Positions 41,990 through 47,824 of a DNA stretch of 64,000 nucleotides are shown here, in pieces. Every line of letters begins with the position of its first letter. Within the stretch, counting starts at the first letter, position 1. The notes under the pieces were generated by a model. That model had not been told where the DNA came from. It saw only the letters and a list, made by a program, of their open reading frames with translations, and searched no databases. This DNA comes from Dioscorea cayenensis subsp. rotundata (lineage: Eukaryota > Streptophyta > Magnoliopsida > Dioscoreales > Dioscoreaceae): contig NC_052489.1 of NCBI RefSeq assembly GCF_009730915.1, positions 26,901,916 through 26,965,915 of the forward strand, given 5' to 3'. The position numbers were made by a program, and so were the translations under genes.

Positions 41990-42254
41990 TATTAATAAGG
42001 GAAAATTACTGTTCACCCCTCGTAATTTTCAAAACTTCCCAAAAACCCCCTCCAACTTTTGCACACCCCGGACAGCCCTCCGTTATATTTTACATTCCTT
42101 TTAACCCCCCGCCGGTAAGTTGAAGTGGGTCCACGATATGAAATTCCTTTTTTTCGCCTCGCAAAAGGTGGGAAAAATAGACCCAATCATAACTTTCTTT
42201 TACGCATAGTTTTTTCAATGCCTCCTCGCTTGCTTTTTTTCTCAAACAAAGTTT

Positions 42255-42345
42255 TGAGGGCTCATATCTTGTTTCTCCTTGTTCTTGTTCTTGTTCTTGT
42301 TCTTCTTCTTCTTCTTCTTCTTCTTTTTTTCTTCTTCTCATTTGG
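42255..42345. repeat. (TTCTTG)n/(TTC)n microsatellite in the MULE
   Basis: CTTGTTCTTGTTCTTG passes into pure CTT repeats. It lies just inside the left terminus and creates spurious poly-Leu and poly-Glu frames. Confidence 0.85.
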
Positions 42346-42379
42346 TCGTATTCAATTTTAGCTCTTCCGATTAAATTAT

Positions 42380-43395
42380 GGAGAGTTTTTTTGTGCTATT
42401 GCTAGATACAACTGGGGAGGGGACGAGTGCTAATGTTCACTACCGACTTCTTGGGAATCAGTTAGAATGAAATATGTGAGCGATGGGGTCTCGATATTTC
42501 CCGTGTCGAGTGAAGTTTATCACACCCGATGGACATAAAACCAGTATGTCTCATATAAAACGAGGTTGACTTCCAGCGCATGTGTCACGTGCACTCCATC
42601 TTCAAATGTTCATTGTTGATCTTGTTGTTGGGGACGGATGATGTGGCATCGTATCCTACTGAAAACGAGTTCTTCTCGTTGTAAGTTTCTTCTCATTTAT
42701 GTTTATATAGTTGTAGAAGTTAATTATTGTTTATTATCCCTCGCCATCGCTTTACATTTATCAAGTTTCCATTTAAACACTATTGTCTCCGATTAACTTA
42801 TTAACTTATTATTTAACTTTTTTTGTTTTAACGCTTAAGATTTATGTTTATCGCTTTAAATATTTTTGTGTCTCGCTTTAAATATTGATCGTGTTCGCTT
42901 TAAACTAAAGTGTTGGCGGGAATTTCGAATCCTGGGCAACGCTTGCTCCACATCATGGCGAGCTCGAGGGTGTGGCATGCCTTCCTTCCTCATCCGATCA
43001 AGTCGAGTGTTGTCGCTGGATATCGACAATGTTTTTGAAGGCGTTGAACATTTCGTAGACGCACTTAGGAATTTTCTGCAATCAAAAAGGAATTTTCGAC
43101 TTCAAATTATCGAAGAACGAGAAACACCGAGTGATCGTGGAAGGAAGCTTCGACTTCAAAAATGGCGTATAAGGAAGCTATATTCCCCATACCCGGACAA
43201 ACGACGAGCTAATGGATGAAAAATCGCGAACTCGCGTTTGCGACTCGCGACGAGAAGGCAACCCGAGTGTCCTGAGACGAAAGAGGATCGAGTCGTAGCG
43301 TCCCGAGGTCCGCAAGTTGCGTTGTAGCCATCGCTATCGCTTTCGAGTCACAATCGCAGATCGTGGAATGAATCCATGTCGACTCAGGCATCGTG
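42380..43395 (+). pseudogene. MULE transposase relic, middle deleted
   Basis: 42378-42690 carries N-terminal remnants of a MuDR-type transposase: MESFFVLLLDTTGEGTS, then CRVKFITPDGHKTSMSHIK, then QRMCHVHSIFKC and DDVASYPTENEF. 43100-43390 carries what looks like the C-terminal part (KEAIFPIPDK-like and KRIES motifs ahead of a decayed CCHC-knuckle-like stretch). The catalytic DDE region and SWIM domain are missing, because only about 400 bp separate the two parts. Frames are broken in several places. Attribution of the N-terminal motifs comes from memory of monocot MULE proteins, not from a search. Confidence 0.6.
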
Positions 43396-46300
43396 TATAT
43401 ACTTCTTATTATTGTTTAAATATCGAACTTTATATTTAAATATATCTCTTACGTTTTAAATATTTTTATTCTCTGCTTTAACTCGTTATTTTTTTATCGC
43501 TTTAAAAATAAATTTGTATCCGCTTTAAAATGTACTAACGGGATGGTGCTAGCGGTTCCCCAGCTGCATTAATACACGATAATGTACCTCGCGGACTACA
43601 ATATCATCCAACAAGAACAGTAACCTCAAAACGAAACAGTAATGAATTTAATTGAATTTAGATACATGTACATTTACATCGACAAAAATTTGTCATGTTC
43701 TTCGGAAAAAATGAATCAATTTAAAACCGGGTTTACATTTCGAAACTATTACACCTATACAACGACTATGACCCCGCTTGCATACACTCCCTTCCCGGGT
43801 TCGCTTTTACACAAAGAAACGGAGTTTAAACAATTACATTGATATTTACACAATGAACTATATACTTAAACACCGAAAAGTGTATGTTAAACAATGAATC
43901 CGGATTATTAAAGAAAGAATCGTGTATACAAATATAGAAAGAATGACTAAGAACCCGCTTGCGAAGACTCCCCTCCTGGTCGTGATGCCGTACGCCTCCC
44001 TCCCTAAGTATGCGGGAAACATACCTTAATCGCAAATAAGGGACGTCGACCCCTGCGGTACCCAGTAGCTTCTCACCGGCGAGTAATCGCTCGATAAACC
44101 GCACGACATAGACGCCGCGATCGACACTTCCTTTTTTTCGTCGTGGGGCTTCGTTGTCGTGAACAAGCTGGGTACTATGGTCGCCGACTCGCCCAACTCC
44201 ATGTCGATACGTAGGTCGAATAGGTTCCACTGTCGAGATATACAAGTTCATATTAGAATGCCGATTATTTACCGAACACTATTACACAAAACACAAATTA
44301 TTAAAGCACTTACCATTTCTAGCGCTTTTTATCGTATTCTTCGCTGGCATGAAGAATAATGCCCGTATTCTTGTTTTTTTCATTGTCGAGGACTGACGAT
44401 ATGGAAGTGGCCACTCATAATTATCGGGAGGATGACGATGTCCACTTCACTGCAAGTTGCGCAGGCATCTCCAATCATAACCATCGTGGATTCATGTGCG
44501 TCGTCGCCTCGCTTTGACATGAACAAGGCCCGATGGCCGTGTGATGGACGCGCCTCTTATAACGATATGGCACTACGCTCATCGCTCTTTTGCAAGATAC
44601 ATACGAATGCGCCCATCACATCGCTCCCGCGACCATCTCCTTCCCCTCGAGCGTGTCGAATAGATCGCCCGTGTGGTGCCGACAGAGTCATTCTTCCACA
44701 CGCATACGGTCTGTGGTCGAACGGAACAAAAGACATGTAAACAATGTTGTAAGTATAAAATTAAACGTTAAAGTATAAACTTTAAATTCTATATTGAATG
44801 TTTAAACAGTAACGGTAATATTTAAAAGGGTATCACTTATAAGTTAAATGTTATACTCAGAATTTTTAAACGTTAACGCTCCTACTTAAATGGTAACTAA
44901 AAGCAGTTTTAAACAATATCATAAAAAAACTTCAAACTTACTTGTCCATAGGGGCGCTTGAGGAAGATCCTTATCAACTCCTCGCTCAGTACTTATCGAG
45001 GCGCGATTGATCAACGTATTTTTTTCTTCTGAATGAAGACTTTCCGAAGTTCTTCTACTTTTTTTATCGCTTCCTTTAATGGGGGACGACGGCAAAGATC
45101 AACGGGAGACACTTCCTTACATGCTTCTTGTTCTTGTGGGATCGTGTCCGCCTCGACGCGGCACGGTCGACCGTTGGTTCCACCGTGAATTCCCACTTCG
45201 CTGAGGATAGACTCAACGACCTTCTCAACCGTGAGTTCCACTAGCAGCAGATCAATGGGAGACACAACGTTGTCCGGTTGTTCTTCTTCATGGATTGTGT
45301 CCATCTTTGATGCCGTGATCGTCAGCGCCGGTTCCCACGTCAGATGCATGATGTCGTCAACACAGAGTCGACGATCTTTTCCACCGCGGCAAACTCAACG
45401 CCATCTTCAATCTCCTCCACCGTGATGGGCATGTCATCAACGTTAACAACATCAGCCGCCGATGGTCTGCCGCCGATGGTGTCGCTTATTATTTCATCGT
45501 CACCCGAGACGCGGGTGGAGACGGAGGCATTATTGTTTTCCTCTTTTTTGCAAGCTTCTTCGAATGAGGCCGTCTTTGAAGACCGAGTTGCAGTGACATC
45601 CTCGCCTAGTGCCGGCAGGGGAGCTGCCACGTTCGGGGTCGACACTGGCCGGGGAGAAGCCACGGTCGAGCGGGGTGGGGGAGGGCTTCTCGGCCTCGAC
45701 GAATACGTTTTGGCTTGAAGCGAGGGAGAACGGGCGTCCAGCGCGCAAGGAAGAGGTTGCCCTCTCATCTTGCCTTTGAGCAAGCGGTTCCGGAGCAATA
45801 GCATCCGACCGACGGTTGGCCCGAACAAATACTTCTTCATCAGCATTCGCCGGAACCAGCTCAGGAAACTAGCATGTGTAAAGCAAACAATCTTAGCGAA
45901 ATTATTTAGTTTAAACAATTAAAACTATATTTACACATGTAACTCGTATATTTAAACGTTATAACCTATTGTGTTAAACAGTAAACAAACAAATTAAACA
46001 TTAAACTAAAAGTTTAAACGGTAGTTGAACAAAGTTAAACGGTAAGTTATAATGTTAAACGATAGATGAATAAAGTTAAACGGTAAATGATATGGTTAAA
46101 CGTTAACGTCTACAGTTAAACAAAATATTTTTGAATTATTACCTCTTTTCCTTCGAGAGATGACAAACTCGTCTCTATCGTCGCTTGCTTCCGGTAAGTA
46201 TTTTCACCGTAGCACAAAGATCCTTGGGATCTTGCAGAACGGACTTTCTTTCCCGGCTCCCGGTCACCAGAAAACCAGATGTTAAGCGCCACTGCAACCC

Positions 46301-47146
46301 TTAACATACCCGGTGTTGGTCTTCTTCCCCGCAGCATCTAGATTGCGACTCGGGTAGCGGCTTGTGGTATGTCCTCCATAAGCCACTCGTGCGTCGCTTG
46401 CGCCCATGCGTAGCGCCCCCATTCCGTGTATATCATCGACATAATCAACGATCCGCTTAGGAACCGAGCAGGGAGGTATTTGGGAAGAGGATTGTACCCG
46501 TGAGGTACACCATCGTGAGTTTGGCAAAATTCTCCTCTTCTCCCTCCGTCCAACGAGTCGTCAAGAGTGCTCCCTCGATGGAGTCTCCGTGCTCTCGTGA
46601 CGTCTTCGATAAATACCTCTCTCGAAAGTCGACCGTGTTTTCTTCTTCGAAACACGATCGCCTCCCCATCGCAACGCAGCCAAGAACGATCGCCACATCT
46701 TCGGGCTCGAAAAGTCGCGATGCTTTCCCCGATCCTCGAATTTATTGGTGCGGTTATCGTATCTCGCAATGTAGAGTCAAGAAGGGCCCGCTCTTGGTAT
46801 ACGACTTCCAACTCAAGAATGTCGTGAACGGTGTTCTTTGGATGATCTCCCGATGTCGAGGGATCATGTGAACTTTCAATTCGACCCACGGTCTCCACTA
46901 CTGGGTGTCAAGTAGCATCGCCCATTAACTAGATCGACCGCCATAATCACAAGCTCGCGACAATAACAAAGCACATTGTTAAGCGGAAATGTAATTTGTT
47001 AAACGGTAAACACTCAGTTCTTAAACACTGATATCATTTTTTAAGCAGTGACGTATACTATTAAACAGAGATACAAATAATTAAACGGAGACGAACTAAC
47101 TTAAACGGTAAAGCTCATTGTTTAAACGGAGACCTCATTTTTACAA
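42730..47146. repeat. 20-21 bp periodic TTAAAC motif in all MULE noncoding blocks
   Basis: TTAAAC-like hexamers start at 45911, 45931, 45952, 45974, 45994, 46014, 46035, 46055, 46076, 46096, 46116 (intron); at 44737, 44761, 44782, 44802, 44822, 44844, 44866, 44886, 44909, 44932 (intron); at 46979, 46999, 47021, 47041, 47061, 47081, 47101, 47122, 47141 (5' block); at 43807, 43826, 43846, 43866, 43887, 43908 (3' block). The inverse motif (CGCTTTAAA) starts at 42730, 42751, 42772, 42793, 42812, 42835, 42855, 42877, 42899 and at 43415, 43435, 43455, 43477, 43501, 43524, on the transposase side. The 14 or so bases between motifs are not conserved. Coding blocks lack the pattern. Confidence 0.85.
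43945..46960 (-). pseudogene. DUF1985/Ulp1 (C48 peptidase) gene of the MULE, degraded
   Basis: Read on the minus strand. The start is probably at about 46945 (MAVDLVNGR). A DUF1985-like block lies at about 46870-46330 (KLTMVYLTGTILFPNTSL, RYAWAQATHEWLMEDIPQA), then ALNIWF and TYRKQATIETSLSSLEGKE up to the donor at 46142. Intron 45871-46142 is followed by an acidic, Ser/Thr-rich exon (45870-44942, ending RIFLKRPYGQ), intron 44711-44941, then the Ulp1-like domain: FDTLEGKEMVAGA, GAFVCILQKS, VILPIIMSGHFHIV (His motif), GSVDRGVYVVRFIERLL and VPYLRLRYVSRIL. The catalytic Cys expected in VDCGVYV is Arg. Two or three frame shifts are visible, so no active peptidase is made. Family assignment rests on motif memory. 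Confidence 0.65.
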
Positions 47147-47824
47147 CTGCAACCATATCAACTGAAAGGGTAAACGTAGATTATAAACATTACACAAAAC
47201 ACAACAATCGGAAAAACCATTTCGATCAGTATACATAGACGAAAAATGTAAAAACAAAACAAAAAAACCCTAGCCGAGACATCTCCCCTGCAGACTAACA
47301 AAAACCCCGACCGATTAATCCCCCGAAAGCTTTCAATGTCTTCCAACAAAAACAAAATCACAAACCAAAAACCGAAAAAAATGTCTCTTCGTAATGTAAT
47401 AGTTAACAAAAACCATAATGAATACCTTAGACTCGCAGTGACGAAATGCCGAATACTTGCACGGACTTCTTCTTCGAGACGCCCGGTGGAAAGGGAAGAG
47501 TGCTCGTGGGAAGAGAAGAGCTGGAGACGCAAGTTGAGCTGGAGTCGCGAGTTGAGAGAAGACAAGCAGCTGTAATGCCTAAGAAAAACCCACCCACTTC
47601 CTCTCACACCGCTGAAATGGGTGCAGCCACGACTTCCGCTAAGGGCATTTTCGTCCATAAAATTTTTAAATACACTCCGCTTTAATGCCCAGCTACGTAC
47701 TTTGGGGGTTTCAAAATCATGGAGTTGAAAAGGAAGGGGTTTTTGGGTATTCCGAAACTATGGGGGTTTGTTTGGCAATTTGGCAAAGTTGTAGGGTTTT
47801 TTTGGCAATTTCCACTATTAATAA

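What the first reader, a model, noticed from the sequence alone, without database searches (positions are those of the whole stretch)
42730..47146. Introns of a MULE built from a strand-aware ~20.5-bp periodic TTTAA motif
Six separate noncoding blocks of the 5.8 kb MULE carry a TTAAAC-type hexamer at almost constant 20-21 bp steps. In the intron at 45871-46142, eleven successive starts are 20, 21, 22, 20, 20, 21, 20, 21, 20 and 20 bp apart; in the 5' block eight steps are 20, 22, 20, 20, 20, 20, 21, 19. The bases between are not conserved, so this is not an ordinary tandem repeat. On the Ulp1 side the plus strand reads TTAAAC(G), on the transposase side CGCTTTAAA: in the sense of each gene it is always GTTTAA/CTTTAA, and the switch falls between the two convergent genes (43545-43800). 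Coding exons lack it. Two helical turns per step would put every motif on one DNA face. It may be a binding array, a splicing or anti-silencing signal, or the seed from which introns grew. I know of no description.
Basis: seen in the sequence. Interest (0 to 1): 0.85.

Follow-up and report, generated by a model that had tools for sequence, protein, structure and literature searches.

The report
Fixed-step motif arrays in plant transposons
A family of plant jumping genes carries a short DNA word repeated about every 20 bases through its non-coding parts, probably docking sites that let its own protein keep the host from silencing it; related families keep the step but use a different word.

Summary
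In the 5.8-kb element, 26 TTAAA pairs lie 19-23 bp apart; shuffles give a mean of 0.24 and at most 3. The word mostly runs in gene sense, reverses between the two sides and nearly avoids coding sequence. Only two of six blocks are supported introns; no transposase was found.

Genome-wide, three GTTTAA at steps 19-22 match 16,076 times (backwards control 33), at steps 24-27 only 11 times (control 26).

Sister copies encode a plant mobile domain/DUF1985 and an Ulp1 protease, the make-up of VANC/KIU anti-silencing MULEs.

Of 10 fetched DUF1985 loci, three keep GTTTAA/TTTAA, three have TGTGTA at the same step and places, four have no array. Between families, cores are better conserved than spacers.

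Best reading: target arrays of the elements' own VANC-type protein, a published kind in Arabidopsis. The pitch of about two helical turns, kept while the word changes, is not described in what I could read; Sasaki 2022 and all supplements were unavailable. Binding and demethylation are inferred. The window copy is broken.

The parts
41999..47815 (.). MULE-like element, window copy of a large family
   Evidence: flanked by the exact 9-bp repeat TATTAATAA (41990-41998 and 47816-47824); ends GGGAAAATTAC / GTGGAAATTGC; 1670 (right end) and 2022 (exon) first-look candidates genome-wide, not confirmed one by one, best 40 scored each
42773..42903 (+). array A, 7 sites, steps 20,20,22,21,22,22
43416..43528 (+). 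array B, 6 sites, steps 20,20,22,24,23
43826..43911 (-). array C, 4 sites 3' of the Ulp1 gene, steps 21,21,40
44761..44912 (-). array D, 8 sites in intron 2, steps 23,20,22,22,20,20,21
45911..46119 (-). array E, 10 sites in intron 1, steps 20,20,21,20,21,20,20,22,41
46979..47125 (-). array F, 8 sites upstream of the first PMD exon, steps 21,20,20,20,20,22,20
46143..46944 (-). exon with plant mobile domain / DUF1985, broken in this copy; start at a putative ATG
   Evidence: open in sister copy L017: PMD 55.6 bits (cut-off 34.9), DUF1985 33.9 (cut-off 35.1); window copy only with frames joined by eye and X at joints: PMD 22.6, below cut-off
45869..46142 (-). intron 1
   Evidence: GT 47 of 47 and AG 46 of 46 mapped loci, some loci held twice
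44942..45868 (-). linker exon, proline-rich, broken in this copy
   Evidence: 318-aa open frame in L017 2654-3607 without a domain above cut-off
44711..44941 (-). intron 2
   Evidence: GT 42 of 43, AG 16 of 17
44314..44710 (-). Ulp1 exon 1 (histidine side), broken in this copy
   Evidence: with exon 2, in sister copy L032: Peptidase_C48 35.3 bits, cut-off 20.7
44230..44313 (-). intron 3, short, without an array
   Evidence: GT 18 of 18, AG 13 of 18
43950..44229 (-). Ulp1 exon 2 (end approximate); catalytic-cysteine codon changed here and in some other copies, kept in others
42912..43404 (+). plus-strand remnant, identity unknown, ends approximate
   Evidence: no convincing Pfam domain in the piece 42860-43216

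Best explanation
The arrays are target sites of the element's own VANC-type protein, a plant mobile domain/DUF1985 module joined to an Ulp1 protease (the KIU form of VANC). The protein reads a short word, roughly TTNYYGTKTAW, in a form that differs between families (CCGTTTAA here, CTGTGTAT in a related clade). It needs many words in one orientation, about two helical turns apart, so that neighbouring molecules bind on nearly one face of the DNA. Binding across the non-coding parts removes silencing marks, so that the family can be transcribed and move. SHOWN: the arrays, their pitch, prevailing orientation and non-coding place; genome-wide specificity of the pitch for GTTTAA; the domains in sister copies; a second word at the same pitch in a related clade; cores better conserved than spacers. 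INFERRED from Arabidopsis VANC work: binding by this protein and demethylation. INFERRED without direct evidence: cooperative binding on one face.
For: PMD/DUF1985 in L017 and DUF1985 over its cut-off in 5 of 6 related proteins tested; Peptidase_C48 in L032. PMC5735166 (parts 1-3 of 6 read): VANC21 sits in introns, intergenic and terminal non-coding regions on a 9-base word arrayed in one orientation at high density; VANC6 uses another word in tandem repeats. PMC13317346 (passages): VANC genes with Ulp1 (KIU) recognise motifs in non-coding regions of KIU VANDALs and hypomethylate them. The same anatomy here. Pitch: 16,076 matches at steps 19-22 against 11 at 24-27. A second word at the same pitch, places and orientation in a clade 37-51% identical in protein. 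Changed cells: cores 13 of 322, spacer A/T letters 138 of 680, p=3e-13; with spacer divergence halved p=8e-4. Several length differences between families are whole units of 20-22 bp.
Against: No binding, methylation or expression data. Four of 10 fetched DUF1985 loci show no array within about 0.7-0.8 kb (two of the four are 95% alike). By position, 0 of the 9 DUF1985 loci on C1 and on C2 below 16.3 Mb lies within 10 kb of a TGTGTA array listed, so most listed TGTGTA arrays belong to elements whose proteins I have not seen (only 150 of 455 DUF1985 candidates were scored). Only 1 of 10 top MULE-transposase hits in that stretch lies within 10 kb of one. Within the family burst, cores are not clearly better conserved than A/T sites with A/T neighbours (p=0.065), and a rank test of TTTAA against spacer A/T gave p=0.46. 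Between families, one of four single comparisons is not significant as it stands (p=0.13) and three are not with spacer divergence halved; cells of related sequences are not independent. All six blocks could be transcribed, so a role in RNA is open.
Confidence: 0.7

Rival explanations
1. RNA-level signal: the words act in the transcripts of the two sides (intron recognition, retention, RNA-protein binding), which is why they run in gene sense.
For: Sense orientation on both sides; at least two blocks are introns with conserved splice sites; the other four could be transcribed non-coding sequence.
Against: A pitch near two turns of double-stranded DNA has no obvious meaning in RNA (inference); intron 3 has no array and keeps its donor site in 18 of 18 copies; the Arabidopsis counterpart binds double-stranded DNA (PMC5735166).
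Confidence: 0.11
2. Transposase-binding repeats, like the subterminal repeats of Ac/Ds or CACTA elements: the array helps a transposase assemble on the element.
For: The plus strand of the Ulp1 side often reads TTAAACGG, which contains AAACGG, the Ac transposase site (recalled; the listing shows 8 occurrences of AAACGG in PMC3260210, which I did not open).
Against: Array sites lie from 774 to 5126 bp of a 5817-bp element, not at its ends; orientation follows the genes; no transposase was found in this family; the duplication is 9 bp, not the 8 bp of hAT elements (recalled).
Confidence: 0.08
3. Neutral relic of tandem duplication: a 20-bp seed expanded and decayed without function.
For: A 41-bp unit in intron 1 at 80%; neighbouring spacers slightly alike (0.38 against 0.30 expected); whole-unit length differences between families; weak core conservation within the burst.
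Against: Cores better conserved than spacers between families; coding sequence spared and one prevailing orientation per side; the word changed while the pitch stayed.
Confidence: 0.08
4. Nucleosome or DNA-bend signal: periodic A/T words set curvature or exclude nucleosomes.
For: A/T-rich core at about two helical turns.
Against: The words are specific, asymmetric and contain a conserved G, which a bend signal would not need (inference).
Confidence: 0.03

Closest known systems
VANC21 and VANC6 target arrays of Arabidopsis VANDAL MULEs (PMC5735166)
   Same: short word in one orientation at high density in introns, intergenic and terminal non-coding parts; word differs between families; the element encodes a DUF1985 protein; tandem units gained and lost (read)
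   Different: words here are CCGTTTAA / CGCTTTAA and CTGTGTAT, not YAGTATTAY or AGTTGTCC/AC; a fixed 20-21-bp pitch is not mentioned in the parts read, and the words interval, spaced, periodic and 20 bp do not occur in the main text; orientation here reverses with the gene side
KIU-carrying VANDALs / Kaonashi (KI) MULEs: VANC with an Ulp1 domain (PMC13317346 and PMC2528002, passages only)
   Same: PMD/DUF1985 and Ulp1 in one MULE gene; Ulp1 gene opposite in direction to the other coding side
   Different: no transposase found in this family; another host plant; binding not tested. The functional claim in the review rests on its reference 61, which I take to be Sasaki 2022; I have not seen it
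Ac/Ds subterminal AAACGG repeats (recalled)
   Same: multiple short words, one of which is contained in TTAAACGG
   Different: position, orientation rule, superfamily and length of the target duplication

Membership tests
KIU/VANC-type MULE | DUF1985 (or the related PMD) domain in the element's gene | tested here: met
   DUF1985 cut-off 35.1: L072 37.2, L067 41.7, L068 40.0, L066 44.2, L070 39.9 over it, L071 20.9 under it; L017, same family as the window, 33.9, with PMD 55.6 over its cut-off of 34.9. The window's own copy is broken
KIU/VANC-type MULE | Ulp1 (C48) peptidase domain in the same gene | tested here: met
   sister copy L032, two exons joined at the predicted splice site by eye, 35.3 bits, cut-off 20.7; exon 2 of L027 alone 20.6. 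Window pieces and both L017 exons alone gave no C48 match. Met for the family, not for the window copy. Ulp1 was not looked for in the other families, whose loci are too short
KIU/VANC-type MULE | 9-bp target site duplication | tested here: met
   exact in the window; of 19 copies with both ends mapped, 7 exact and directly at the ends (L019, L022, L024, L026, L027, L029, L032) and 4 with one mismatch (L016, L017, L018, L028); the rest unclear in A/T-rich flanks
KIU/VANC-type MULE | MULE (mudrA) transposase in the autonomous element | tested here: not met
   none in the plus-strand pieces tested of the window and L017; the family looks non-autonomous. Full elements of the other families were not fetched
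KIU/VANC-type MULE | no long terminal inverted repeats (KI-MULEs are described as non-TIR in PMC2528002) | tested here: inconclusive
   no ungapped inverted pair of 18 nt or more joins the two ends, but the outermost bases are alike
VANC target array | words in one orientation, dense, in non-coding regions | tested here: met
VANC target array | word differs between related families | tested here: met
   GTTTAA/TTTAA in L066, L072, L073; TGTGTA in L065, L067, L068
VANC target array | bound by the element's VANC, causing loss of DNA methylation | not testable with these tools
   needs protein and methylation data
Ac/Ds-type subterminal transposase sites | sites confined to the ends | tested here: not met
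   array sites from 774 to 5126 bp of a 5817-bp element

The most novel reading that the evidence does not exclude
VANC/KIU proteins read a fixed-pitch ruler: words in one orientation every two helical turns, so that the protein assembles along one face of the DNA. The pitch is the invariant of the system and the word is the part that evolves between families, which is how each family keeps its own anti-silencing without touching the others.
Probability: 0.4. Interest if true: 0.85.

Novelty: new variant of a known kind. Interest (0 to 1): 0.68.

Why it matters
Hosaka et al. call it enigmatic how one VANC protein recognises long targets so specifically and could still change targets (PMC5735166). 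A pitch that stays while the word changes suggests an answer that can be tested in vitro with synthetic arrays of altered spacing. It also offers a simple way to look for such elements and their words in other plant genomes: any word repeated at 20-21 bp with free spacers.

Tried and rejected
Searches with the window's own broken pieces, single or joined, gave nothing over a cut-off (only weak matches). One joined variant hit PMD and DUF1985 but carried a few residues that I had typed at the joints and that are not in the sequence; I discard it and rely on exons of sister copies. AlphaFold on L072 gave mean pLDDT 53, too low for a fold search, which I did not run. Viral contigs with the pattern (5) hold other repeats. 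Methylation decay as the cause of CG/TG alternation in the core (13 CG, 12 TG, 2 CA of 30 minus-side sites) is doubtful: the two decay products are unequal and exons keep CpG o/e 1.15-1.53. A TGTGTA off-period control and a narrower TGTGTATA listing did not complete, nor a four-word TGTGTA pattern; for TGTGTA only the backwards control and the local bands stand, and some listed TGTGTA matches are TG/TA microsatellites.

Papers. PMC5735166: parts 1-3 of 6 and a word look-up. PMC10398659: outline, introduction, passages. PMC13317346 and PMC2528002: passages. All others: listings only. A DOI that I recalled for Sasaki 2022 (EMBO J) is not held; supplements were closed. That the pitch is undescribed rests on the searches in one open-access library and on the look-ups.
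Full report
Check. The element at 41999-47815 is flanked by an exact 9-bp repeat, TATTAATAA. Within it TTAAA occurs 44 times and 26 pairs lie 19-23 bp apart, against a mean of 0.24 and a maximum of 3 in 300 dinucleotide shuffles. From the 51 TTAA in six blocks I picked 43 in chains; 35 of their 37 steps are under 30 bp and average 20.94 bp, sd 1.09. The minus-side sites read about TTACCGTTTAA, with the G in 25 of 30; the 13 plus-side sites about TTTCGCTTTAA. Cores with CG are 6:0 in gene sense on the plus side and 14:1 on the minus side; the wider set of cores gives 8:2 and 27:7. The one CG exception is CGCTTTAA near the right end. TTAAA occurs 0 times in 2862 bp of coding stretches and 40 times in 1100 bp of array blocks. 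In a scan of the whole window for 6-mers of at least three different letters repeated four times at a step of 15-60 bp (plus or minus 1), every hit lies in arrays E and F.

What the genes are. In this copy the minus-strand gene is broken by frameshifts, and searches with its pieces fail. The genome that holds the window (584 Mb, 2249 contigs, unnamed; a plant by inference) has 2022 first-look candidates for the first exon; the best 40 were scored and, beside the window itself, are 90-94% identical. I fetched 20 loci at length; L025 holds only the right end. L017 has the first exon open; it matches plant mobile domain at 55.6 bits (cut-off 34.9) and DUF1985 at 33.9 (cut-off 35.1). L032, its two Ulp1 exons joined over the predicted intron, matches Peptidase_C48 at 35.3 bits (cut-off 20.7). 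The two Ulp1 exons of L017 gave no match on their own. The catalytic-cysteine codon is changed in the window and some other copies and kept in others. Splice sites: intron 1 GT 47 of 47 and AG 46 of 46; intron 2 GT 42 of 43 and AG 16 of 17; intron 3, which has no array, GT 18 of 18 and AG 13 of 18 (counts include loci held twice). No transposase was found in the plus-strand pieces tested.

Within the family. Sixteen to 48 loci could be mapped per block (some held twice). Most keep the words at steps of 20-24 bp or multiples; some have lost words (L027 and L029 keep only two TTAAA in F). Block lengths differ by about one unit at most, for instance 310-327 in E, 224-236 in F, 211-238 in A. So the arrays were already in the ancestor of the burst and have hardly turned over since. 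Core TTAA columns vary less than other A/T columns of the arrays (0.011 against 0.037, p=2e-4) but not clearly less than A/T columns with A/T neighbours (0.020, p=0.065, eight duplicate loci removed). A rank test of TTTAA against spacer A/T gave p=0.46. Within the burst the evidence for selection is therefore weak.

Across families. The DUF1985 profile has 455 first-look candidates in the genome, 150 scored. I fetched 1.8 kb around 10 of the 150, chosen by hand for diversity. Three (L066, L072, L073; 76-91% alike in protein, 79-87% to L017) carry GTTTAA, in places TTTAA after another base, at 20-22 bp both upstream of the exon and in the following intron. Three (L065, L067, L068; 76-81% alike, 37-51% to the former and L017) lack that array and carry TGTGTA, in the setting TT.YTGTGTATA, at 20-23 bp or twice that, in the same two places and in gene sense. 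Four (L064, L069, L070, L071; 39-55% to the first clade) show no array; L069 and L070 are near copies of each other. A test in which any 5-mer may win gives 4-11 pairs at 19-23 bp in the six, against at most 3 in 100 shuffles each, and 1-2 pairs in the four, no more than shuffles. In other step bands the six and the window give 1-3 pairs, except at twice the step (39-43 bp), where they give 2-11. In both words TT stands five and four bases before the first G, so they look like two forms of one word, TTNYYGTKTAW, in the same register; this reading is mine.

Conservation between families. With L072 as reference, core letters agree in 93% (5' block) and 98% (intron) of cells, spacer A/T letters in 78% and 76%, exon letters in 87% (A/T only: 90%). 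With L068 as reference in the second clade the cores agree in 97% and 97%, spacer A/T letters in 87% and 81%. Summed, 13 of 322 core cells differ against 138 of 680 spacer cells (p=3e-13; counts rebuilt from rounded fractions). Choosing perfect cores in the reference favours this result. Halving the spacer divergence to allow for it leaves p=8e-4 overall, with only the clade-1 intron significant on its own; the clade-2 5' block is not significant either way. Cells of related sequences are not independent. Several length differences are whole units of 20-22 bp, but not all.

Genome-wide. Three GTTTAA at steps of 19-22 bp match 16,076 times, the backwards control 33 times. At steps of 24-27 bp the count is 11, control 26. 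These matches overlap within arrays and come in part from the many copies of one family, so they are not independent events. Three TGTGTA at 19-22 bp match 1,596 times, control 139; of 120 distinct spacers in 74 rows that I copied out of the list, 102 are 14 nt long. Two listed TGTGTA loci show the strand reversal within about 6 kb (C1:4975966-4981228, C1:14047943-14053138). The off-period control for TGTGTA did not complete. By position, 0 of the 9 DUF1985 loci and 1 of the 10 MULE-transposase hits in the stretch covered by that list (C1, and C2 to 16.3 Mb) lie within 10 kb of a listed TGTGTA array. So the proteins that go with most TGTGTA arrays are unknown to me; the link between array and DUF1985 gene rests on the six fetched loci and the window family.

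Mechanism. Arabidopsis VANDAL elements encode VANC, a DUF1985 protein that binds a short word, arrayed in one orientation at high density in introns, intergenic and terminal non-coding regions, and strips DNA methylation from its own family; a related VANC uses another word (PMC5735166). Some VANCs carry an Ulp1 domain (KIU) and act on KIU elements (PMC13317346, passages). Domain make-up, location, orientation and word change here match that system. What is added is the pitch: nearly constant, about two turns of B-DNA, with largely free spacers, and kept while the word changed. Cooperative binding on one face is the simplest reading of such a pitch, but nothing here shows binding. A role in RNA cannot be excluded, since all six blocks could be transcribed. 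Novelty is claimed only against the searches listed; the sources most likely to mention spacing, Sasaki 2022 and the Hosaka supplement, were out of reach.

Noticed in passing
L014-L033, e.g. around window 44060-44180: Copies differ by many single-base insertions and deletions, many of them at CG, TG and CA sites, as if both alleles of a C/T site had been written (seen by eye); this may be a consensus artefact of the assembly and may exaggerate the frameshifts.
   Followed up: no
window 43577 and 45582: The three sister copies looked at (L017, L020, L028) carry about 310-320 bp and 135-170 bp that the window copy lacks; the first stretch holds more minus-sense TTAAAC words.
   Followed up: partly
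L030, L031: The plus-strand side differs from the other copies and contains a stretch similar to array E in reverse orientation.
   Followed up: no
L064, L069, L070, L071: DUF1985 loci without a detectable array in the 1.8 kb fetched, although their proteins are about as close to the GTTTAA clade as those of the TGTGTA clade are.
   Followed up: partly
window, minus-side cores: The CG of the core alternates with TG (13 CG, 12 TG, 2 CA of 30); the inequality of TG and CA speaks against simple methylation decay.
   Followed up: partly
L001-L005: Viral contigs matching the GTTTAA pattern: L002-L004 are plain tandem repeats with conserved spacers; L001 and L005 are other repetitive stretches.
   Followed up: yes
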